The position numbers and the translations under genes are program-made. The notes under the pieces were generated by a model that saw nothing but the letters and a program-made list of their open reading frames with translations, did not search any database and was not told the DNA's origin. From assembly GCF_026210795.1 (NCBI RefSeq), contig NC_089442.1, positions 4,182,501 to 4,246,500 of the forward strand: DNA of 64,000 nt, given 5' to 3'. Of the stretch, positions 709 through 63,789 are shown one piece after another (the stretch's first letter is position 1; each line of letters begins with the position of its first letter). The stretch comes from Rhizophagus irregularis. Taxonomy: Eukaryota > Glomeromycota > Glomeromycetes > Glomerales > Glomeraceae.

Positions 709-1883
709 GGATGCTGTTAGATATTACCTAATATTTTAGGGGGAAGGAGGGTAACTAAAAATCTTAGGTTACATACAATATTATATAAGAAATTATATAT
801 ATAACATATCTTACCCAGAGGTATACTTGCCGTTCAAACTAAAATTCTGTAAATGCCCACCCAAACCCAAATCCCATGGGATTTGGTGTAATGTCAAAAC
901 TAGAAAAATTAAGTTTGAACGGCCATAACTGGACAAATCAGCTAAACCTGGATAAATTGGATAAATATGGACAAATTAAACAAAATTCCAAATCCAAACT
1001 GAAATAATCTGGACAAAGTGAATATCCCAAATCCAAACTAAATTTCAAATTTACGATTCAATTTATTATTTATAAATTTATTAATTATTACAATTATGTA
1101 TAACAGAAATTACAATTTTATATTAAAATTTTAATAAAAATAAACTATCTTAATCATCATGTAACAAGTCTTTAATATTAAAATTTTTGTCTCTAAATTC
1201 AATTTTTGATTCATTTATATTTGCTTAATTTTCATTAATAGAACCTAATTGATTTATATTTAACTAAATTAATTTGCTTATTTCCAAATTTAATCCATTT
1301 TCATTTTGCAATTACAAATCATTATTCTCTTCACTGTCATCATCAAAAACTGGAAATGAATCATTATCCTCAAATAAATTGATACCTTCTTTCATTACTA
1401 TAGTAATTTGGTTAAAAGCAGTGGTGAATTCATCTTGACTGATGTTATTATTAATAAAATTTAATTCACTTGGAGCATTTGCAATTAAAAAAGAATGGAT
1501 TTAAGCCAATGATTCCAAATGAAATATATTCATTCTAAATATTTAATTAATGATATTTTTAGATATTAACATTAAGATGATTAAATAATATTAGAAAGGA
1601 ATTTAAATTTACTTATTTTGTCTCTTACATAAATTGGGGGAAATCCATATTAAATTTGTCATTTGTCTATCAGATTTTGGATTGGTCTGAGTTTGGCCAT
1701 TTGGAATTATAAGTTTTTCCAGTTTTTCCATCATGGGATTTTAGGAAGTGCTGGAAAATCCCATTTGTCCTGATATTTCCACTGGACAAATCCCAAACTT
1801 TTGGGTTTGAACGGTAAGTATACCCAGGGGAGGGGGGTAAACTCTTATATTAAAGTGATATTAGGTAATATTTGATAGTACCC
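709..1883. mobile_element. Non-autonomous Harbinger-like element, TTA target duplication
   Basis: The ends are inverted repeats: the left end starts GGATGCTGTTAGATATTACC and the right end, read in reverse complement, starts GGGTACTATCAAATATTACC. Each is followed by TAATAT and a G/C-rich tract. TTA flanks both sides (706-708 and 1884-1886), the 3-bp duplication expected of the PIF/Harbinger superfamily. There is no transposase inside; a second element (822-1822) is nested in it. The superfamily assignment rests only on target size and end structure. Confidence 0.55.
822..1822. mobile_element. Non-autonomous hAT-like element nested in 709-1883
   Basis: The ends are inverted repeats reading TATACTTGCCGTTCAAAC on the left and TATACTTACCGTTCAAAC in reverse complement on the right. 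The flanks are an 8-bp duplication with one mismatch (CCCAGAGG at 814-821, CCCAGGGG at 1823-1830). An 8-bp duplication points to the hAT superfamily. Subterminal blocks rich in CCCAAATCC / GGGATTTGG recur in both orientations. No coding capacity is recognisable. Confidence 0.7.
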
Positions 1884-2139
1884 TTATTGATCAATTTAAT
1901 TTAATTTCAATTTGGCAAAAACTATACTAAATTAAACCAATCAGAGCTCTACATTTATCAAACTGTTTATTAACCTATTAAGAAACTGGATCATAAATTA
2001 ACTTATTTACCTATTAAGAAAAATTCAAATCTGTTAAATTTCAAATAAAATGCCCAAACTTTTTTAGCAATTTTTATAATTTTCTTAGTAATACCATCAA
2101 AAATTTAACTATCATATGATTTTTGTCCTATATTATAGT

Positions 2140-2362
2140 TAAGATTATTAGAAAAACTAAAGGGTTTTAGCAAGTTAACAAAATGTTAAAATAGTAAAAT
2201 TTTATTAAAAAAATAGTAAAACTTTAAAGAAAAGCAAACCCTGATGAAACTTATTATAAATACTAAAACTGCTAAAACTTTGACAAAACTATAATAAAAC
2301 TATAGTAAAATCATAAAAAAACTAATTATAGAATTTTAAAGAAGTTTAGGTAAGCAATCTTG
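2140..2362. mobile_element. Degenerate copy of the TAAGGTTGC MITE family
   Basis: Shares the body motifs of the better-preserved MITEs at 27.1, 37.1, 43.9 and 47.0 kb: tracts built on AAACTATAATAAAACTATAG and AAACTTATTATAAATAC. The decayed ends are TAAGATTATTAGAAAAACTA on the left and GTTTAGGTAAGCAATCTTG on the right. The target duplication is no longer clear. Probably an old deletion derivative of the hAT family that includes 18092-38319. Confidence 0.6.
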
Positions 2363-2448
2363 ATTTTATAGTATTATGTACTAATATATAAAAATAAACA
2401 GTAATAAATAAAATGTGACAAATAAGTTTTTATTTACTTAAAAAAACT

Positions 2449-4146
2449 ACCGTATATAGTGGGCCACAGTACCCCAGGTATCTTGCAAAAATCGGGGGTT
2501 TGACCCTGTACCCCCGGTGTCACCCCCGTCTGCCACCCGGTGGTAAACAAAGTTTCCTGCTTCTGTTATATGTGCTCTCAGCGAAACATTAATATTCTCG
2601 CTTGGTTTAGTTTTATTACTACTTAACTTTCTAATTGCGATAGCTCTCGCCACGATATTTCATCCATTATCTTCTTTCAAAATACGATAGTTCTCTTTAC
2701 AAAAGTTTATATTTTATTCATTTCATAATTCTTGTTATGACATTAAATTCACCATGAATTTGTCCAATTAAAATTAATTAAGCGAACATTACAATAAAGT
2801 TTAGGGCGAACCTATTACCTTTAAAATAACATTACGCTTTACTAACAATTAATTAAACAAAATTACTTTTTCATCATAAGAAAATAGTAACAAAAACAAT
2901 CGAAACAATTAATTTTCATATAAAGGGTATTTTATTTATTCTTCATAAAATTCACAATTAACTAATTTACTTAAAGTTTTACATCGTATCTGACGACTGT
3001 CGAATTCGCTTCCCATTCCGCTCCTATTTAAACCAACTTTCTTATTCTTTCTTTTCTTACTTCTTATTTCTTTCTAATATTTTATGTTATGTGTTCTTTT
3101 TTATGCGTTATCTTATATGCTATTTATATATTATCTTTTCTAATATGTTATACTATTTTAATATGCTATCTTTTCTTTAAAATAATCTTTCAAATATTAT
3201 GTCGTAAAGATATAATCCATCTTTTGTGGCTGTGCTATCTTTTCTTTAAAATAAAATAATCTTTCAAATATTATATCGTAAAGATCCATCTTTTGTGGCT
3301 GTGCTATCTTTTCTTTAAAATAAAATAATCTTTTAAATATTATATCGTAAAGATCCATCTTTTGTGGCTGTACTATCTTTTCTTTAAAATAAAATAATCT
3401 TTTAAATATTATATCGTAAAGATCCATCTTTTGTGGCTGTGCTATCTTTTCTTTAAAATAAAATAATCTTTTAAATATTATATCGTAAAGATCCATCTTT
3501 TGTGGCTGTGCTATTTTTTCTACTGCGTCTCGTCAGCTATTCTTCTACTACGGCTGCAGTTCATCAATATTTTACATGTTTTTATTTTTTTGTTCCTTTA
3601 ATTCGCTATCATTCCTTTTTATATGATTATCATTTGTGGCTTATGATTACTCCTCCTAATTGTTCTTATTGTTGAACTTGATAAACTGGTCGCTAAGCCA
3701 CATCGATCAACTCCCTACTTGATCTATTGATTCTCCGTTAATCATTTAATAAACATTACATCATGTAGATCATTCCTTCTCCTAAAAGTTTATCCTTTCC
3801 GGTTAATTTTATCCAATCATGTGACTTTCTATCGTTTTATCTTTCATTCCATATTATTCCTCCATATTATGCGATTACTTCAGTATCTATGGCTACACTG
3901 GGTACTAAACAAAGCCTAAAAATTCCGTTTTTTGTGAATATCTCATGATCTACTGGTCCAATTTGAACGATCTTTTTTTTATTTTGAAGAGCTCAATGAG
4001 AGCTATCAAACAAAAAAAGATGGCTCAAATCTGATCACTAGATCACGAGATAATTGTAAAATATCCCCCTGGGTACTATACAATTCTATGAAATTTTTCA
4101 AGGGGGTACTATGCATATGAGAGTACTATGGCCTGCGATATACGGT
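2449..4146. mobile_element. 1.7-kb element with ACCGTATAT inverted termini
   Basis: The left end starts ACCGTATATAGTGGGCCACA and the right end, in reverse complement, starts ACCGTATATCGCAGGCCATA, so the terminal repeats are long but imperfect. No clear target duplication was found. The interior holds a G/C-rich patch near 2480-2550 and a 69-bp tandem array (3200-3512), and near 3940-4060 an inverted repeat around a GAGCTCAATGAGAGCT core. The minus-strand ORF of 68 codons at the left end lies in the terminal region and is not a credible gene. Superfamily not assigned. Confidence 0.55.
3200..3512. repeat. 69-bp tandem repeat, about 4.5 copies
   Basis: The motif CCATCTTTTGTGGCTG recurs with exact 69-bp spacing (3286, 3355, 3424, 3493), with a first copy near 3218 carrying a small indel. 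Because 69 is divisible by three, the minus strand stays open and spells a 23-residue repeat starting MDLYDII. I regard that open frame as a by-product of the period, since there is no credible start context or non-repeat sequence around it. Confidence 0.85.
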
Positions 4147-4670
4147 AAGTTCTTTAAATAAATATATATAAATATCTGATATGGCAAAATATCTACTGTC
4201 ATATAATAGTAAAATTCTGGAAAAAATTGATTTTTATGTGAAAATCATGTGATATGTGATCTGAATTATAAATTAAACAAACTTTAATTAGCATTAAAAT
4301 ATAACAAATTTCTTATTTAAGTTATTTGTAAGTTGGTAAGATATAATATTACATTTGAATCATTAAAAATTTGAAATATATCTTCTTAATTACCATTTAA
4401 ATCATTATCTTTCAATATATATAATTTTTTATATTATAATTAAAAAAATTAAAAGAAATAATAAAATTAATAAGAAAATATATAAAAATATGAGAAATAT
4501 AATAAAATGATTAATATAATAATAAGAAAATAAATGATATTACAAATATAAACTTTTCTCATTATTTTTCATATCAATATTTATTTCAGATACTTGAATA
4601 TATTTATTACTTTTTTTTCAATAAATGAAAATTTATATAATCACATTTAGTTTTAGTTTATATATAATAT
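4147..4670. other. AT-rich intergenic DNA
   Basis: Runs of A/T with scattered TATAAT-like strings. No gene or element ends were recognised. Confidence 0.5.
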
Positions 4671-5540
4671 ATATCTATCTGCCAAAAGTATTTGGACACT
4701 TCTAAAAAATGACCATTAAATTACATTATTTTAACATTCAGTGATCAGAATTTAATGATTTTGATTCATTGAATTTGTCTAATTGAGACGCATCTAACTG
4801 CAGTATTTTCAAGTCTGTAAGATCAATAGATCAAAAGTTATTACTGATAGTAAAATGCAAATAACTTTTGATCTATCAATCTTAGCGATATGAAAATAAT
4901 AGATATAATGTAACTTAACAAGACAAATTTAATGAATTATATTTCATCTTTCTAAGTTTGATAGAGAAGAAAATGTTGTGAAATTTGTATATGTCAAATT
5001 TTTAAAAATAAATAATGAATTATTTGCATTTTACTGTTGAAAATAACATCTGATCCATCAAATTTAAAGACATAAAAATATTGCAATTAGATTAATCTTG
5101 TTTATTGAATCATAAATAACTAAATTCTGTTTACTAGTTATTGAAATAATGTGATTTAACTTTATAAATAAAGTAATTTATTTTTCATCTTTAAAAATTT
5201 AACAAATACAAATTTCACAACATTTTCTTCTCTATTAAACTTAGAAAGATGAAATATGATTCATTAGATTTGTCTTACTAAGGTATATTATATCTATTAT
5301 TTTCATATCTCTAGAATTGATAGATCAAAAGTTATTTTGCATTTTACTGTTTAAGACATTTAGTAATAACTTCTGATCTATTAATTTTACAAACTTGAAA
5401 ATACTGCGGTTAGATGCGTCTCAATTAGATGAATTTAATGAATCATAAATTATTAAATTCTGATTACTAAATGTCAAAATAATGTGATTTAATGGTCATT
5501 TTATAGAAGTATCTGGATACTTTGGCAGGTGGATGTATAT
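4671..5540. mobile_element. Fold-back element with Tc1/mariner-like ends
   Basis: Nearly the whole 870 bp is an inverted repeat. The left arm begins around CTGCCAAAAGTATTTGGACA, followed by a block containing GACCATTAAATTACATTATT. The right arm, in reverse complement, begins CTGCCAAAGTATCCAGATAC, followed by GACCATTAAATCACATTATT. The TGCCAAAAGTATTTGGACAC type of end in a TA-rich flank is typical of Tc1/mariner elements. No transposase is present, so this would be a MITE or hairpin derivative. Internal blocks with GATCTATCAA also occur in both arms. Confidence 0.65.
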
Positions 5541-6246
5541 ATCTGAAAATATTATATTTTTTTAAGTATTAATAAAAAAACGTTATAAGTAAATTTTTGA
5601 TGGTAATTTTTTTTTTTATTGAATTATACTTTAGTTTTTATAAATTTATAATTTATATTAATGTTTTTTTTATTATAAATAATTATTTTTGTTGATAATA
5701 TTTTATATTTTTTCCTCTTTTTCTTTTTTGCACCTTTAAATTTTTCAAATAATATTTAATAAAAAAAAAAAAAATATCAAAAATCTATATGTATAATGTA
5801 TAATTCAAAATTATTTATTGCCTAATACTTATTTGCTTATATTGTAAAATAAAATACTAATTATTATAATTTTTTATTAGGTCTATTAAGTATAATTTAT
5901 ATCTTATTAGGAAAAAAAGCAGCAAATTATCCAAATAAATCGCGTAGATTGTGCCAACAGCATGTGTAACTTGAATTCAAGAAATTTGACTGGAAATTTA
6001 GATGTAGAAAGGTAATCACTGTTTTTTAGGGTATCACTTTTTTTAAACTTCATTATGTCCAATATTATAGTGCAGCCTGCAGACTTTTATCCTATTATCA
6101 AGGTTTTTTCTTGAAATTTATTTATTAGTTTAAATACATATTGGATATATTGAATAAATTTTTTTTTTTTTAAACAAAAAAAACTTATTCTTTATAAGTT
6201 CGGATGTGCAGCTGGTAAAAGTTTAAATCCGATCAAGAATCTTACA
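5541..6246 (+). promoter_or_regulatory. Upstream region of the GRR1-like gene, possible 5' UTR exon
   Basis: AT-rich leader region. Around 5940-6011 the base composition becomes more balanced and ends at AAAG|GTAATC, a good splice donor. A pyrimidine-rich tract and candidate acceptors lie at about 6198 and 6211, just before the start codon at 6247. Joining them gives short frames that stop at once, so if spliced this is a non-coding leader, possibly with a small upstream ORF at 5962. No TATA box or operator stands out from the AT background. Confidence 0.3.
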
Positions 6247-8119
6247 ATGGCCTCAGAGAAACTCTTATCTGAACAAGTTACAAAACAGACTTTACCCTCT
6301 CAAGCTTCCCAAAATTCATTAGCAAAAGCTTCTACTATACCTTCTGAATTGATCCTTCAGATTTTCAAATATGTTACCTCTACTGCCGACCTAAAATCTT
6401 GTATTCTTGTTTGTAAATCATGGTGTCGCTGTGGGGTTGAACTCTTGTGGCATAAACCAGTATTTACTGGATATGGTTCTCTCATTAAACTACTAGTTAC
6501 TTTATCACGAAGTACACAAACTTTTCCGTATGCTCTCCTTATCCGTCGCTTAAACTTCTCCTTTTTGGGGGAGCATGTAAGCGACGAAATATTAAAACGT
6601 TTAAGTTCTTGCGAAAGATTAGAAAGACTAACTCTTGGAGGATGTAGAAGACTTACAGATAATGGACTCCTAAAATTATTAGATAAAGCAGATGGGTTAG
6701 TTGCACTAGATGTATCAGACATTGAAAATTTGACGGACGCAGTTGTAGAACTAGTAGGTGAACGATGTCGAAGATTGCAAGGATTAAATGTGAGCTTATG
6801 TAAAAAAGTTTCAGATAAAGGTATCTTGGCTGTCGCGTCAAAATGTAGGAGTCTGAGAAGGGTATGTATTGTAATTTAAAAGATAAAAATTGTGCCGATA
6901 TTACACAACAAAGGTTTATAACAGCATTAATTTTTTTCTTACGTGTGGTTTTTTTATTCGTATTATTATCCAATTATTAATATAGATAAAACTTAGCAGT
7001 TGTGACATTATTACTGATGAATCCGTGGTTATTTTGGCTAAGAATTGTCCGCACCTTCTTGAGCTTGATCTCACCAATTGTAATCAAATAACAAATGATG
7101 CAATCCAACCCGTTTTCGAAAACTGTACACAATTACGCGAGCTTCGACTTGCTTGTTGCACCAAACTTACTGACGAATCTTTTACAGAAACTATGCCAGC
7201 CTTGTACGAACAATTACGTATTTTAGATCTTACATCCTGTGCACTCATCACTGATCAAACTTTACTCAAAATTGCACATAGTGCACCCAAGTTACGTAAT
7301 CTTGTTCTAGCAAAATGTGGTAATATCACAGACGAGGGAGTTTATCATATAACTCGTTTGGGGAAGCACTTACATTATCTTCACTTAGGTCATTGCTCGC
7401 GTATCACAGATCATTCAATAACTCATCTGGCTCGTCATTGTACACGGTTACGATATCTTGATTTGGCCTGCTGTACTCAACTCACAGACGCGTCAGTATT
7501 TGAACTATCACATCTTCCTAAATTGCGTCGTATTGGATTGGTAAAATGTGCTCTTATAACAGATCAAGCAATCTATGCCTTGATTGAAAACCGGGTCGTA
7601 CAGCATACGTTAGAACGTGTGCATCTGTCTTACTGTGTAAATCTTACCGTTCCTGCAGTTTTAGAATTAGTAAATTCATGTTTTCGTTTAACACATTTAT
7701 CTCTTACTGGTGTTCCAGCCTTTTTACGTCCAGAAGTTCAACAATTTTGCAGACAAGCTCCCAAAGAATTCACACCACATCAAAGACAAGTGTTCTGTGT
7801 TTTTAGTGGGAAAGGGGTTAAAGACTTAAAACAATATTTGAATAGTACGGTTATAGCACAACAAAGAAATAATCGAATTGCTAATGGAGTTGGTAACATA
7901 AATGATCAGGTCGTCGGTCCAGTTGCAGCTGTTAGTGCTGACATTGAGGAATCCGTAGTTTCTGAAGCAGAAGGAGTGGGTGGGGATATATCTGAGGGTG
8001 GAGAGGGTGAGAACGAAAATAGGCACAGCCAGAATGATAATAGAAATAGGAATCGTGTCTCGGATCGTAATCCTGAGGGTGAAGATGGAGATGTTGGAAA
8101 TGCACTCTTGGATTTTTGA
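6247..8119 (+). CDS. GRR1: GRR1-like F-box/leucine-rich repeat protein (SCF substrate receptor)
   Basis: Two exons, 6247-6861 and 6986-8119, give 582 residues. The intron starts GTATGT and ends TATAG, phase 0, and removal continues the LRRs (RSLRR then IKLSSC). An F-box occupies about residues 31-73 (starts IPSELILQIF). About twelve cysteine-containing LRRs follow (pattern L-x-L-x-x-C-x-x-I/L-T-D), to about residue 445. A conserved block after the LRRs (FTPHQRQVFCVFSGKGVKDL) matches the fungal Grr1 family as I know it. The tail is acidic and Asn/Glu-rich. By family knowledge, Grr1 recruits phosphorylated substrates such as G1 cyclins to the Skp1-Cullin ubiquitin ligase in nucleus and cytosol and links nutrient sensing to the cell cycle. 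The gene is intact and ends 381 bp from the convergent ECH1-like gene. The main alternative is a paralogous F-box/LRR protein of unknown substrate. Confidence 0.93.
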
Positions 8120-56719: not shown

Positions 56720-57399
56720 TCTCATTATATATGTCTTCCATTGTTCTAATATTTCTACTGGTTCTATAATCAATAGTTAATAAACTGCGACTTATTCTGT
56801 ATAGCTTAACCACATATGTCTTTCACTTTATCTAGATTATATCTAGTCAGAAACCCAGGAAAATTCCATTTTTATAATAAATGAATAAATCAGAATTTTT
56901 GCTGTATTATGGAATAAAACAGAATTTTTATAATTTTTAACAATTTTATTCTGACATGTGACAACTAGCCAATCATTATTGTATATTTTATAACTATATT
57001 GTAATAAAAGTTTCATTAAAAAATGTGATTTTGCAATTTTGCAATATCTATTTGTCCTATCACTAGCACAACCTAAGTTAGCTTATATTAATATGTAAGT
57101 CGGCTAGAATTATCACATATTTCTTACTATAATTAGTAATTTTTTATCAGAATAAAATCAGAATTTTTTCTTTATTGTAATAAAAATTTGCGATTTAATA
57201 TTAGAATAAATCTGGATTATACTTCAAATGAGTCAAGTCGAGTTAAGTTATATATAAATTTGACTCGACTCATATTAAATTGAGTTGAGTTAAGTCGAGT
57301 TAAAATTATAAAAAATATAAACTTGACTCAATTCAAGTCAAGTTAACCGATTAAACTGAATTGAACTGAATTGAGTTAAATCATGTGATTTATTTTGAC
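56720..57399. other. AT-rich spacer ending in GAGTCAAGTCGAGTTAA repeats
   Basis: No gene. From about 57225 there are short inverted and direct TTGACTCGACTCAA-type words. Similar words in inverted order occur at 63840-64000, so these may be the subterminal regions of one larger element that surrounds the 57400 element. Confidence 0.45.
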
Positions 57400-57559
57400 T
57401 AAAGCTTCGAACAGGTCGGTTTGGCCTGGATTATAGATGGTTCAGATTAGAGCCAAAATCCGTAAGAACTGAACCAAAAAACTGGTGGTTCAGTTCGGTT
57501 TAATCCGATTTTTATAAAAATGCAAAAAATCGAATAACCGCCCATCTAGTTATCGTATA

Positions 57560-58440
57560 AAGCCGAGCCATATATCATTTGATTCGTCTCGATGAGACGC
57601 ATCGAATGGTGGTATGATCATGTCTCTAGCATCAATAGATCATATATTAGCTTACGCTAAATGATTTATAAATAATTGGAATTAGCAAGCTATCTATTAG
57701 TGCTAGAGATATGATCTTAGCACCATTCAACGCGTCTCAGTGAGACAAATCCAATGAATATAAATTCATCTGTGTATGACTACTGGATGGCGAATAATAT
57801 CAAGTTTCGCATTTTTTTAAAATTTTCGAGCATTAAAAATTAAAAATTCCGATACATGAATTTATTCATCATCCAATGGTCATACAAATATGAATTAGGA
57901 CTCATTGGATTCGTCTCGATAAGACGAGTCGAATGGTAATTAGATCACGTCTCTAGCATCAATAGATAGCTTGCTAATGCCAAATTTTTATAAATCATTT
58001 AGCGTGAATTAACTTACGATCTATTAATGCTAGAGACATGATCTCACCACCATTCGACTCGTCTCATTGAGACGAATCCAATAAATCTTAATTCATATTT
58101 GTACGACCATTGGACGACAAATAAATTCATGTATCGGAATTTTTAATTTTTAACGCTCGAAAATTTTAAGAAAATGCGAAACTTGATATTATTCACCATC
58201 CAGTAGTCGTATATGGACGAAATTATATTCATTGGATTCGTCTCACTGAGACGCGTCGAATGGTGCTAAAATCATGTCTCTAGCACCGATAGATAGCTTG
58301 ATAATTCCAATTATTTATAAATCATTTAGTGTGAGTTAACGTGTGATCTATCGATGCTAGAGACATAATCTTACCACCATTCGTCACGTCTCGTTGAGAC
58401 GAATCCAATGATATATAGCTCAACTTTGTACAATCACTAG
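57560..58440. repeat. Nested palindrome array with CGTCTC/GAGACG cores
   Basis: Six palindromes of the type ACCATTCGACTCGTCTCATT-GAGACGAATCCAAT, near 57598, 57738, 57918, 58066, 58240 and 58393. They are separated by ATGTCTCTAGCATCAATAGA and its inverse. The block as a whole is an inverted repeat centred near 57990. It is the same motif family as 47700-49075. Confidence 0.78.
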
Positions 58441-58802
58441 ATGGGTGGCTATTTGATTTTTCGCATTTTTATAAAAAATCGGATTAAACTGAACTGAACT
58501 GCTGGTTTTTCAGTTCTAACAGTCAGTGTGCATGTCCCCTGATCGGGTTGTGTAACATTTTTAATTAAGAAATCTGCATGTTGCATATCATAGTAAAAAA
58601 TCCAAAAACATATAGAAAACCGCAAAATTCAACAACTTTCCATTTGTCTGTAACAAAATATTACATCATATCATGTGATAAAAAGTGGTTAGGTTTATTG
58701 TTCGAGGTATGTTAATATTATTATTGTTCGTTTTAATATAATATTGTTCCTCGTTTAAAAGAATCTTAACGTCAAAGTTTGCATAAATTTTAATTTATTG
58801 AT

Positions 58803-61800
58803 ATGGAGACTTATGAAATTACTTTTGAAGAAAAAACCCCTTTATATTATAGTAGTCAAGAAATATTTTCAGAAGAAACTGAAGAAGATCTTGACACTTC
58901 TTTTGATGAACTTTCTGAGTTAGAAATATTTGAATTTAATGAAAAAAATTATATTAATGCGCAAAATGCACTAGAACAAGAAGTTGTGGAATATTCAAGT
59001 GATGAAAACGAAGAAGAATTTGGTACATACGAAGACCAAGAAGTTCCTCCACCTCCTGTTGAAGATGCAAACGAACCTGTATATAGACTTAATCCAGCCA
59101 TGTATACAAATTTTTCACCATGTATTCTAATTGATTATTTAGATAATAAATTGCAAACTTGTGGTCAAACTAAAAATGTTAGGAATTTATGCCAATTAGT
59201 TGGAGTTTGGCAAATAGATGAAAATGCAGTATCAGAATACCAGTCAAAAGGAATACCATTGGGGGTGTGTATGAGTCATTTCAATTATGATCAAAAAAAT
59301 CATAATGCATTTATAAAACAATTGCGGAATCCTGAACAAAGTGAAATTAGCCGTCGACGTTGCTTATTGTGTTCTAAAAATTTTCATTTCTTTAGCCGTG
59401 GAATTGGATGTAAAGATCATTTATGGAAAATGTGGGGAAAATATATCCAAATTCCATGTGTTGGTCTCTATACATGTAATGCAGTACACGAATGCCAAGG
59501 TATTTCCCAGCGAATTTTTGATGATGTTTCAACAATTCAATATATTTGTTATAATTGTTATGAATCTTATGGTGGGCATTTAAACCGTCGACCTGGTTCT
59601 GGCAAACGAAAAACAACTTGTGAACAACATAAATTGCATAAAGAAGATACATCCAAAAGTTTAAAATTATTGGCTCAGTGGCTTACGTATGTAGCAGATA
59701 CTGAAACAGAAGAAAAAAAAGAAATAATTCTCGCTTCTATGTTAGTTCCAGCTTTAAAATTTTTATATACTCCATCTGAAACACCCTTAAAGTATGAATA
59801 TTATAATCCTAAAGATAATACACGTTATTTAAATCTTGATGAATTTAATAATACAAATAATATTGATGATTCAATTAAATTTTTAATTGAAATTTTACCT
59901 AAATTGCCCAGTTACTTTTTTTTAAAATTATTATTAAATATAAATCGTATAACGGATATTACACAACCAAAATTAGACTGGACGGATGATAAATGGAAAG
60001 AAATTGGAGAAAAATTGGGAAATGAAGTATGGAATTCGCGTAAAATAGTTACAGATAAAAAATCAGAAATACAATTACCAATTTCTCTTAATGCATATTA
60101 TGAAAGTTTTCTAAATTTTCTAAGAGGTTTTTTTGATGGGCTTATTGGTGAAATTTTTAAAAAAAAATTAATAAATTTAAATAAAAAACGAAAACAACGT
60201 GAAAAACCTTTAAAACAATTAGATGTTGAACATATTACCAAATGTGTAACATTTTTTGCTTCACTTATAATAAGTATGGCATTTCCTTATCTTGGTGTTT
60301 GGTTTACTTTCAGGTAATGGCTAGTATGTCTCGAAAATCACGCCTCTTTTTTTCATTTCGCCAACTCTTATCTACTCTTCATATAAGTGGTCATACTGAT
60401 AGTAATGAACGCCGAATAGAGAAACAACGAATGGATAAAGTTAATCCAACTGAAAGATTAATAAAAGGACCAAATATATGGAATTTGGTGGTTATAGATA
60501 ATATTGATTTCAAAGAAAAATCTTTTACATACGGAAATATTTTTGACACCACACGCAAAAGTTCTCATACAACGCTACGAATGGCATTTCAAATGCGGAT
60601 GCCAATTCCTTTGGAAGAAAGAGTAGATGATAAAAAAAATATAACATCTCCAACAGGTCTTTTTGGCATGAATGATCTGATGAAAGACACATGGGATAAG
60701 TTTGATGATATTATTGATAATCTCTTAAATTTTCAAACAAGTTCTGAAGGACAACTTCTTTACAATACCGATTTTGATATGGCAGCTATTCACCAAAAAA
60801 TTCTTGAAAATGTTGATCATGGTTGTTTAGCTGATGCACCTAATATAGTCATATTAGAAACTGGAGGAATTCCAAATTCAGACGAAGGAATATTTCAATC
60901 CACAGAAATGTACAAACAAGACTTTAATTTAGGACCGGATGATTCCTTGGATGTGGTAGCTGATGAAGCAATCTTGAAGACTAATAAAACAGAGAAAAAT
61001 ATGGCCGAAATTGCGTCCTATTCTTGGCCAGTGGCACACATCCAAGGATATGTGTGGAGTTTTAATTGTATTATTTTCGAGCTATGGAATTTTTGACCTA
61101 GCAAAAGTATCAGGAGTCAAATTCTTGGATAAATTGGACAAAATTGTTGATTATCGTTCTACAGTTCGTGTTTTAGAGTTAATATGGTGTGCAGTAACTA
61201 TATCTATTCGCATATATATGAAAAAAACAAACCTTTAATAAATATAATATAATGGATTCAAATAGTGGTGCCAATAATATTTTACGAATATGGTATCTTT
61301 ATTATAAATGGGCATCAATTTTCAAAGCACATCGTGTAGGAATCCGTGTTGGCAATTATAAATTGCAGAAAAATGCTTTGTCTTGTTTTGCTGGTTTATT
61401 TACATCAGCAGGAAAATCAAACTATTCGTCATCAGTTACTCAATATCTTGGAATGCTGGCTCAATACCCAAAACTTGAAGAAAAATTGAATGTGTTTCGT
61501 CAGTTAAAATTGATAACGATGAAAACGAAAGGGTCACTACTTCGCATTGACGAAGCCCTTGAAACCTTCGGAGCTAAGTTTATCAAACAGAACATTACCG
61601 GAAATGTAGTTGATGATAATAAATTAAAATTACAAGTCAAAGCCGCCCAGAGGAACGAGATCGTATAGGAATCTTATTATCAGAATATCTTAATGATCCT
61701 TGTGGATCAATTGGACAAAGAAGCTGTAGATACCCGTAAAACGGCCATGTGGAAACTAGTAAACGAACTTTTGTCAGCATTTGAACATTCTGATGATTAT

Positions 61801-62327
61801 AATCGTTATCAAAATCCTTTATGGAGTACTACTACTCCTGATCATATTACGGCGGACAGTATTAGACGTCTTGAAAACTGTTTTTCTGATGGAATTTTGA
61901 GAATAGAAGAAATTTTCCTACAAGATGTCATTTCAATACAAAAAAGTAATAAAGTTGGAAGGAGAAAATTGGGAATTACAAGATGGAAACCTAATGACCA
62001 AAATTCAAAAAAAAATAAAAACAAAATGGCATCGAGTTCAAATACAGAAAATTCTATTTCTGATCAACAGGTGCCAACTAATTTGATACCTCAAGTAGTA
62101 ATTATAGATAAAGATGGGCCGCTAATAAAAAAGCAAGACAAAGCACGTCGTGAAACTAAACCCGAAGAAAAGAGTCTTTTAGAACCATTAGTGACTTGTT
62201 CGAGTATCCGAATGATGAACAAATGGAACAAGTTAGGGAATTGCTAGGAAATGAATGGGATAAGGATCGAATTTATCAATATATATCTCGTCATGTACGT
62301 AATAAAAACAATAAACATAAATAATTT
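58803..62327 (+). pseudogene. D-x-A-I / QWHTSKDM protein (DUF6589-like), putative transposase, frameshifted
   Basis: The first frame (58803-60317, 504 residues) starts with an acidic leader (1-90). A Cys/His-rich zinc region follows (C187, C190, C203, H206, C219, C225, C231, C249, C252, C273, H276), then a basic end. After a frameshift near 60310 it continues SRLFFSFRQLLSTLHISGHT, GPNIWNLVVIDNIDFKEKSF, TTLRMAFQ and IVILETGGIPNSDEGIF. Then VVADEAI and, after a probable one-base insertion near 60975, RPILGQWHTSKDM, FSSYGIFDLA, VDYRSTVRVLELIW, WYLYYKWASIFKAHRVGIR, SAGKSNYSSSVTQYL and DEALETFGAKFIKQNITGN. The tail ends about 62327 (YISRHVRN). At least four more frame breaks lie near 61240, 61640, 61725 and 62195. 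Wording matches the fungal DUF6589 family as I remember it. Function unproven; its TIR/TSD setting suggests a transposase. Confidence 0.7.
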
Positions 62328-62938
62328 ATTATATATTACCTTAAATAAACTTGGTCTTTAATAAGAAGCCTTTCAAGCGTTTCATTATATATAAAAAAAA
62401 TGCCATTTTTCGTTAAAAAGTCCTGTTGTATATGGTTTCTTAAAGTGGTTACGTCAAAAGAACTGCTAAAAACTAAGTTCGTTGGGTACTTTTTTTGATT
62501 TAAAAGTTGGTAGCAAAAGAATCTCGCTTTAATTTGCAAAAATAGGTGAAATTTCCGATAGGTGATAAAAATTTCGCAGGAAGCAAGGGAGGGCCAAACT
62601 TTTACTTATTTTAATAGAAGAAATGTTGTTGAAAAAAGTTTATCGAAGGTGAAGAACGATTATATTGTGGCTTAGAACGAAAGTCTTTAATGGAATATCT
62701 TGAACGAATGTTACACAATAATTTTTAATATGATCGGCAATGTAAAATGGACATGCACACTGACTGCTAATACCTGAACCGAACTAAACCGAATTTTGAA
62801 CCGGTTTTGAATCAGTTCTTCAGTTTAGCCCAAACCGTTCAGAGCTTTAATTTTGACTATACTGATCATTTCCTTTTTGGCGATAGCCATTTCATAAATT
62901 CCATTTTTGTAAAATTTAAAAATTTTTTGTCTCAGATT

Positions 62939-63789
62939 TAAAGCTCTAAATGGTCCGGATTGGTCCGAGTTGGAGAAAATTCTTGCACGACTGAAAAATT
63001 AGTTCATTTCAGTCCTGGCCCAGTTTATATTAAAAGGAGTCAACTGACCAAACACCGAACCGACCAGTTATTTTGGTCCGATTCCGGTCGGCCTCTATAA
63101 TAAAAACGTTGCGAAAACATTTTTTTAGTTATAATTACTTAGAAAAACATTTTGCAACATTTTTTCATTAAGTTGATTAGAAAAACATTGCGAAAACGTT
63201 TTTTCTAACTAAATATACTTAGAAAAAATGTTTCGCAACGTTTTTTCGTTAAATTAATTAGAAAAACATTGCGCAAACGTTTTTTCTAATTAAATATGAT
63301 AAGAAAAAACGTTTCGCAACATTTCTTCTTTAAACTAATTAGAAAAATATTGCGCAAACGTTTTTCTAATTAAATATGATAAGAAAAAACGTTGCGCAAC
63401 GTTTTTTCTTTAAACTAATTAGAAAAACATTGCGCAAACGTTTTTTTTAATAAATATAATTAGAAAAAACGTTGCACAACGTTTTTTCTTTAAATTAATT
63501 AAAAAACGTTGCGCAAACGTTTTTTTATAATAATATGTTAAAGAAAACGTTATGCAACGTTTTTTTATTTAATAATTAAATAATCGCAACGGTTTTAATA
63601 TAAACTATTGCGAAAATATTTATCAGTCCGGTCCGGTCCCAACCTGTTTTTTCAGTCCGGGTTTATAATCCGAAACTGGATCGGACTGGACCAAATATTT
63701 TGGTCCGGGTTGAAGCATCAACCCAGACTGGACCAATCCGAATTTTCAGTCCAGGTTGTCGGATTAGGACCAACCTGATTAGAGCTTTA
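62939..63789. mobile_element. 851-bp non-coding element with TAAAGCTCTAAATGG ends
   Basis: The ends are TAAAGCTCTAAATGGTCCGG and, in reverse complement, TAAAGCTCTAATCAGGTTGG. A perfect 8-bp duplication CTCAGATT flanks it (62931-62938 and 63790-63797). Interior: GGTCCGG / CCGGACC words near both ends and an array (63105-63590) of about 85-bp units made of AAAACGTTGCGCAACGTTTT-type palindromes. The ends share TARAGYTCYRAA with the 57400 and 45711 elements. Confidence 0.9.

What the first reader, a model, noticed from the sequence alone, without database searches (positions are those of the whole stretch)
57400..62849. A TIR/TSD-bounded transposon whose only gene is a DUF6589-like protein
Seen: inverted ends (TAAAGCTTCGAACAGG / TAAAGCTCTGAACGG), a perfect 8-bp duplication ATTTTGAC, subterminal repeats, and a single decayed gene (58803-62327). 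The gene has a Cys/His zinc region followed by conserved VVADEAI, RPILGQWHTSKDM and DEALE.FGAKFIKQNITGN blocks. Known: domains of this type are annotated only as of unknown function in fungi, as far as I recall. Inference: the protein is the transposase of a hAT-like or separate superfamily of DNA transposons, with Asp (ADEAI), Asp or His (QWHTSKD) and Glu (DEALE) as candidate catalytic residues.
Basis: partly seen in the sequence, partly recalled or inferred. Interest (0 to 1): 0.85.

Follow-up and report, generated by a model that had tools for sequence, protein, structure and literature searches.

The report
A jumping gene nested inside another
What looked like one fungal jumping gene is two, one inserted inside the other; the inner one carries what is very probably its own cut-and-paste enzyme, related to a protein family whose job was unknown, and it leaves a 4-letter footprint where it lands.

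Summary
The outer one (TIR TAAAGCT.., 8-bp TSD ATTTTGAC) is a ~1.2-kb palindromic MITE: 10 of 10 fetched gene-less copies have perfect 8-bp TSDs and a single CTAA at the empty site. The gene sits in an inner 4,247-bp element (58520-62766) with 18-bp TIRs CAGTCAGTGTGCATGTCC and a 4-bp TSD, CTAA. Of 41 gene loci, 30 have a CARTC TIR pair round the gene; 27 of 30 have exact 4-bp TSDs, all with central TA; shuffled mean 6.2. Of 15 TSDs predicted from left ends, 12 right ends were found and 10 matched. TIR type broadly follows the protein tree. The protein is remotely DUF6589-like, below Pfam's cut-off. Its core model matches P-element transposase (Z 12.1), then Hermes (8.0), with conserved D, D, E in RNase-H order. 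It is very probably the inner element's DDE transposase. Three copies on different contigs differ by 4-7 substitutions. Ends and TSD fit none of hAT, P, Kolobok, piggyBac or CMC; Academ could not be tested.

The parts
57392..57399 (.). left 8-bp TSD (ATTTTGAC) of the OUTER element
57400..58519 (.). left ~1.1 kb of the OUTER palindromic MITE (TIR TAAAGCT..)
   Evidence: 10 of 10 fetched gene-less copies align over these 1120 bp (88-92% identity)
58516..58519 (.). left 4-bp TSD (CTAA) of the INNER element
   Evidence: single CTAA at the empty site in 10 of 10 outer copies
58520..62766 (+). INNER transposon, 4247 bp, carrying the DUF6589-like gene (decayed in this copy)
58520..58537 (+). left TIR CAGTCAGTGTGCATGTCC
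62749..62766 (-). right TIR, perfect inverse of the left one
62767..62770 (.). right 4-bp TSD (CTAA) of the INNER element
62771..62849 (.). right end of the OUTER MITE, ending ..AGCTTTA
62850..62857 (.). right 8-bp TSD (ATTTTGAC) of the OUTER element
58803..60317 (+). transposase pseudogene, N-terminal ORF with the Cys/His cluster
60230..61096 (+). transposase pseudogene, second frame (IDNIDFK .. VVADEAI)
60978..61238 (+). transposase pseudogene, third frame (LGQWHTSKD .. VDYR)
61222..62247 (+). transposase pseudogene, two later frames (61222-61668 with DEALETFG, 61669-62247)
60497..60499 (+). codon of the candidate first catalytic Asp (IDNIDFK; D548 of the L007 protein)
   Evidence: (25 of 25 rows covering it)
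60962..60964 (+). codon of the candidate second catalytic Asp (ADEAI; D703)
   Evidence: (28 of 29 rows)
61561..61563 (+). codon of the candidate catalytic Glu (DEALE; E905)
   Evidence: (27 of 28 rows)

Best explanation
Two nested DNA transposons. Inner: a ~4.2-kb cut-and-paste transposon (58520-62766) that encodes one protein of about 1,000 aa, with an N-terminal Cys/His cluster followed by an RNase-H-like DDE core with a helical insertion, remotely related to Pfam DUF6589. Proposed mechanism: the protein binds the ~18-bp CARTCR.. TIRs, uses the Asp (IDNIDFK), Asp (ADEAI) and Glu (DEALE) to cut the element out and join its ends to a target staggered by 4 bp around a TA, which leaves NTAN duplications. 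Outer: a ~1.2-kb palindromic MITE with 8-bp TSDs into which the inner element jumped at a CTAA. Shown: element limits, TIRs, TSDs, the empty site, the link between TIR type and protein lineage, near-identical copies at different places, shortened copies of common structure. Inferred: catalysis, the triad, TIR binding by the Cys/His cluster, cut-and-paste rather than another mode.
For: Copies L001-L003 match only 58517-62769, with distinct flanks and 4-bp TSDs. A CARTC TIR pair round the gene in 30 of 41 loci, exact 4-bp TSD in 27 of 30; shuffled mean 6.2, maximum 14 in 10,000. TA core in 27 of 27 exact sites, against a TA dinucleotide frequency of 0.101 in the fetched DNA. Predictions noted before fetching for 15 loci: right TIR found in 12 of 15, 10 of these 12 with the predicted TSD. 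Single CTAA at the empty site in 10 of 10 outer copies. TIR type on the protein tree: 10 changes, shuffled mean 22.2, 0 of 200 as low. All 4 weak PF20231 candidates in the genome lie on this gene; 6 of 8 chosen members hit PF20231 at E 5e-5 to 4e-3, always on the same stretch. Core model: P-element transposase Z 12.1, Hermes 6.5-8.0.
Against: 11 of the 41 loci lack a TIR pair: L004 (a matching right end lies 20 kb away with TTAC/TTAT; that both ends are of one element is inferred), L005, L019, L033, L037, L038 with one end only, and L009, L010, L023, L027, L028 with none or a doubtful one. Three of the 30 pairs have imperfect TSDs (L011 2 of 4, L014 and L016 3 of 4). Foldseek alone finds nothing at E <= 0.001. 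The full-length model ranked Hermes first (Z 7.8), with P element not among the 50 listed. RAG1 (5.2-6.2) scores no better than Cas12 or Hsp70 folds. All PF20231 scores (16-23 bits) are below the curated 27, and one of the eight members hit an unrelated family (reovirus GTase) at E 2.6e-4, so such E-values can be chance. The window's own fragments hit no Pfam family. TIR type E is not clustered beyond chance (42 of 500 shuffles as low). The N-terminal part of the model is poor. Distances between the acidic residues were not measured.
Confidence: 0.9

Rival explanations
1. The inner element is a glomeromycete branch of the described Academ superfamily, not a new superfamily; DUF6589 would then be the Academ transposase core.
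For: From recall, Academ makes 3-4 bp TSDs. Academ is listed among the transposase models used for R. irregularis (passages of PMC11075540) and is reported as long elements abundant in bivalves (passages of PMC10294476), where from recall DUF6589 proteins are also common.
Against: No Academ sequence was available; nothing here ties the two by sequence. The AcademH paper is not held.
Confidence: 0.4
2. It is a highly diverged member of the P superfamily that changed its TSD length from about 8 to 4 bp.
For: Core model closest to P-element transposase, Z 12.1, rmsd 4.0, 263 aligned; termini begin with CA, as recalled for P.
Against: 4-bp instead of ~8-bp TSD; the residue three before the conserved His is Gly in 9 of the 13 rows shown that cover it, Arg in 3 and Asp in 1, so no C/DxxH; no THAP among the Pfam matches of 26 members at E <= 1; no meaningful sequence match to a PDB chain.
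Confidence: 0.1
3. The gene is cargo, or a domesticated host gene, and the TIRs are mobilised by another transposase.
For: 11 of 41 loci have no TIR pair in the searched DNA.
Against: TIR type and protein lineage go together; the gene is the only long coding region in the element; the core fold is nearest to transposases.
Confidence: 0.04
4. One reading: one 5.45-kb element with the TAAAGCT TIRs and 8-bp TSD carries the gene.
For: The TIRs and the ATTTTGAC duplication do flank the gene in this window.
Against: Gene-less outer copies with their own perfect 8-bp TSDs and the empty site (10 of 10; chosen because their two ends lay ~1.2 kb apart); near-identical gene copies elsewhere lack the outer ends.
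Confidence: 0.01

Closest known systems
Pfam PF20231 (DUF6589), family of unknown function
   Same: The weak matches fall on profile positions 270-360 (mostly 295-360) and on the same C-terminal stretch of this protein.
   Different: Scores stay under the curated cut-off; 23 of 26 members scanned (some of them fragments) gave no match at E <= 1, nor did the window's own fragments at E <= 10.
Drosophila P-element transposase (6p5a, 6pe2)
   Same: Core model aligns with VIA-align Z 12.1 over 263-270 residues.
   Different: 4-bp NTAN TSD instead of ~8 bp; no C/DxxH; no sequence similarity found.
hAT transposase Hermes
   Same: Core with helical insertion, Z 6.5-8.0.
   Different: TSD 4 bp not 8; no hATC or BED domain in the Pfam scan of 26 members; termini CARTC.
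Chapaev / CMC
   Same: 3-4 bp TSDs with TA-rich targets; Chapaev3 uses TWA (passages of PMC4079192).
   Different: Termini CAG/CAA rather than the invariable CAC..GTG.
Academ
   Same: 3-4 bp TSD (recalled).
   Different: Could not be compared: no sequence at hand and the AcademH paper is not held.

Membership tests
TIR DNA transposon | TIRs with fixed-length TSDs at independent loci | tested here: met
   30 of 41 loci with a TIR pair, 27 of 30 exact 4-bp TSD; empty site
DDE/D transposase | RNase-H-like core with three conserved acidic residues in order | tested here: met
   D548 25/25, D703 28/29, E905 27/28 rows; core model nearest to P-element transposase and Hermes; Foldseek alone not significant
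DDE/D transposase | the three acidic residues meet in space | not tested
   model coordinates not at hand
DUF6589 (PF20231) | score over the curated cut-off of 27 bits | tested here: not met
   best 22.6 bits, E 5.2e-5: a relative, not a member by Pfam's rule
hAT | ~8-bp TSD | tested here: not met
   4 bp in 27 of 27 exact sites; ~8 bp for hAT and P from a passage of PMC3706591
hAT | hATC dimerisation domain | tested here: not met
   not among Pfam matches of 26 members at E <= 1; a remote form could be missed
P | ~8-bp TSD | tested here: not met
   4 bp
P / hAT / MuDR / Kolobok / Dada group | C/DxxH after the second Asp | tested here: not met
   9 of 13 rows shown have GxxH, 3 RxxH, 1 DxxH; signature from passages of PMC9587614
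Kolobok | TTAA-specific TSD and RR..YY termini | tested here: not met
   TTAA in 3 of 27 sites; termini CA
piggyBac | TTAA-specific TSD | tested here: not met
   TTAA in 3 of 27 sites
CMC (Chapaev) | 5'-CAC..GTG-3' termini | tested here: not met
   termini CARTC; definition from a passage of PMC4079192
Academ | transposase sequence similarity | not testable with these tools
   no Academ sequence at hand; AcademH paper not held
Sola2 | transposase similarity (4-bp TSD alone fits) | not testable with these tools
   no sequence at hand; 4-bp TSD for Sola from a passage of PMC10741241

The most novel reading that the evidence does not exclude
DUF6589-like proteins define an undescribed superfamily of eukaryotic cut-and-paste transposons, with a P/hAT-type RNase-H core, CARTCR TIRs and 4-bp NTAN target duplications, that diversified into about seven TIR types in one glomeromycete genome and moved recently; the Pfam family of unknown function is its transposase core.
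Probability: 0.5. Interest if true: 0.75.

Novelty: new variant of a known kind. Interest (0 to 1): 0.6.

Why it matters
It gives a mobile function, with exact ends, target site and candidate catalytic residues, to relatives of a conserved family annotated only as of unknown function. It supplies a diagnostic (CARTC TIR plus NTAN TSD) for sorting part of the R. irregularis repeats, two-thirds of which were unclassified before the curation reported in PMC11075540 (abstract passage). It also shows how a nested insertion can lend a gene the wrong TIRs.

Tried and rejected
Pfam on the five window fragments: no family at E <= 10. PF20231 in the own genome at E <= 0.001: none, and no control genome rang; repeated at E <= 10. 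Relatives in viral and bacterial/archaeal contigs: 318 and 43 pattern matches, none confirmed by tblastn. PDB by sequence: nothing meaningful. Foldseek alone on PDB and on viral models: nothing at E <= 0.001. NCBIfam on three proteins: nothing at E <= 1. Text search for DUF6589: 0 papers; a search for it with three other terms, at least three of four required, gave 0 papers; a third search was too broad to tell; only CC-licensed PMC papers are held. AcademH, catalytic-domain and KDZ papers: not held. A TIR/TSD scan without any motif gave many AT-rich chance pairs with TSDs up to 10 bp, some ranked above the true pair; 14 of the 27 sequences scanned there showed the CARTC pair, and the motif for one search was taken from these, so sharing of CARTC is partly by construction (the TSDs are not). 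hAT, P, Kolobok, piggyBac and CMC membership were considered and set aside (see Membership tests). In the VIA-align lists, families that do not appear are not excluded. Right-end matches without a left partner (most of those ranked 9 to 22) were not followed.
Full report
Observation. The window lies in a 146.7-Mb genome of 32 contigs; by size and contig number I take it for Rhizophagus irregularis, which is recalled, not tested.

One element or two? Protein searches of the own genome gave 96 matches to the N-terminal ORF and 83 to a C-terminal one. Clustering all 96 and 82 of the 83 gave 75 places, 54 with both parts. The three closest copies (L001, L002, L003) align to the window only over 58517-62769 at about 98%. 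Their ends are CAGTCAGTGTGCATGTCC in inverse orientation, with flanking 4-bp duplications ATAT, TTAT and ATAT; the window has CTAA. The outer ends recur elsewhere without the gene (only 40 of 633 and 40 of 118 first-look candidates were scored, so copy number is a lower bound). I fetched 10 outer copies, chosen from the listed matches because their two ends lay about 1.2 kb apart, so that they lack the gene is by choice. What was not chosen: 10 of 10 have perfect 8-bp TSDs, and 10 of 10 carry a single CTAA exactly where the window has CTAA on both sides of the inner element. So a 4,247-bp element inserted into a 1,199-bp palindromic MITE.

Do other copies of the gene obey the same ends? I examined 41 loci (the window and 40 other places, chosen by match score and open frames, not at random). 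An unanchored scan of the first 27 showed the CARTC TIR pair in 14. With that motif, 18 of 41 had a TIR pair (at least 11 of 14 matches) round the gene; 17 of the 18 had an exact 4-bp TSD, and L016 matched 3 of 4. For 15 further loci with a left TIR but no right end yet I wrote down the expected TSD first (14 plus L004), then fetched more of the right flank: a right TIR was found in 12 of 15 (not L004, L033, L037), with the predicted TSD in 10 of 12 (L014 3 of 4, L011 2 of 4). Total: 30 of 41 with a pair, 27 of 30 exact. Shuffling right ends among loci gives a mean of 6.2 and a maximum of 14 in 10,000 trials. All 27 exact sites read NTAN; TA makes up 0.101 of dinucleotides in the fetched DNA. 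The 11 loci without a pair: L004 (a matching right end 20 kb away, TTAC/TTAT); one end only in L005, L019, L033, L037 and L038; none or only a doubtful end in L009, L010, L023, L027 and L028. No extra flank was fetched for L005, L027, L028 and L038.

Mobility. L001-L003 differ from each other by 4-7 substitutions and 3-8 indels over about 4.2 kb but lie on different contigs with different flanks and TSDs, so I infer recent movement. Three shorter copies (L070-L072) lack window 59173-62082 and hold instead about 164 bp that do not match the window element (L071 has about 300 bp more); L071 has both TIRs and a TTAT duplication, L070 and L072 have one damaged end each. The common structure suggests a non-autonomous form that moved. 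On a tree of 36 C-terminal domains, with TIR types that I assigned, the type needs 10 changes against a shuffled mean of 22.2 (0 of 200 as low); loci labelled as without TIR were one of the eight labels, type E alone is not clustered beyond chance (42 of 500 shuffles as low), and near-copies help such clustering.

The protein. L007 has an uninterrupted frame of 1,014 aa; near relatives of the window copy have long frames too (L002 921 aa, L001 512 and 664 aa). Pfam gave nothing for the window's fragments and only weak chance-like hits for five chosen proteins. Of 26 members, 3 hit PF20231 (best E 3.6e-4), and of 8 members of the clade with TIR type F 6 did (E 5e-5 to 4e-3, 16-23 bits, cut-off 27). 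One of those 8 also hit an unrelated reovirus family at E 2.6e-4, so E-values of this size alone prove little. The stronger point is place: in the whole genome the PF20231 model raised only four candidates, and all four lie on this gene, on the same stretch of the profile. I read this as a true remote relation to DUF6589 and not as membership by Pfam's rule.

Fold and active site. The full-length model (63 rows) is good only in the core; VIA-align ranked Hermes first (Z 6.5-7.8), then RAG1, Transib and ISCth4 mixed with other RNase-H-like folds. The core alone (444 aa, 44 rows, pTM 0.80) matches P-element transposase at Z 12.1 (rmsd 4.0, 263 aligned), then Hermes at 6.5-8.0; RAG1 (5.2-6.2), ISCth4 (5.5) and Transib (5.3) stand level with Cas12 and Hsp70 chains. 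Foldseek itself finds no hit at E <= 0.001; P element is its second hit at E 0.19. The tool's own caution is that middling Z can be a common arrangement; the P-element match stands 4 units above the next. Conserved acidic residues fall in the expected order: D548 (25 of 25 rows) in the first strand, D703 (28 of 29) just after a later strand, E905 (27 of 28) in the helix that follows the helical insertion; window codons 60497, 60962 and 61561. D551, D564, D766, D901, E902 and E936 are about as conserved, so the exact triad is an inference; distances were not measured. The N-terminal Cys/His residues probably bind the TIRs; this is inference.

What it is. It works like a DDE cut-and-paste transposon with a P/hAT-type core. 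Membership: TSD length and termini exclude hAT, P, Kolobok, piggyBac and CMC as defined in the passages seen. Academ and Sola2 allow 4-bp TSDs (Sola from a passage of PMC10741241; Academ recalled) but no sequences were at hand. I therefore call it a superfamily-level lineage of uncertain placement, with about even odds of being undescribed.

Papers. PMC11075540, PMC10045372, PMC9587614, PMC4455052, PMC3706591, PMC4079192, PMC10741241, PMC10294476 and PMC10799480 were seen as passages only. No paper in the searched library holds the word DUF6589.

Noticed in passing
57392-58519 + 62771-62857: The outer element is a highly repeated ~1.2-kb palindromic MITE (633 first-look candidates for its left end in the genome, 40 scored) with TAAAGCTC TIRs and 8-bp TSDs, hAT-like by ends (recalled rule); no transposase for it was sought.
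   Followed up: partly
L020:4541-5656 (G000:C19:3207840-3208955): Here the nesting is the other way round: a MITE of the outer kind lies inside a gene-bearing element that runs 880-6747 and is 1.2 kb longer than its close relative L011. Its TSD was not checked.
   Followed up: no
L070, L071, L072: Shortened copies (1.5-1.8 kb) of the inner element lack the same middle part and share ~164 bp of other sequence, which suggests a non-autonomous lineage mobilised in trans.
   Followed up: partly
L013:25-1037: A diverged relative (about 70%) of the palindrome lies in the left flank of another gene copy.
   Followed up: no
63097-63297: Repeats spaced about 80 bp, partly palindromic, just right of the nested elements.
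   Followed up: no
L004 and G000:C24:6146-18079: Two old copies have their gene parts or ends 10-20 kb apart, apparently split by later insertions.
   Followed up: partly
L014 and L016: Both show the same imperfect TSD (ATAT/ATAA) and are sisters on the tree, perhaps a segmental duplication of one insertion rather than two.
   Followed up: no
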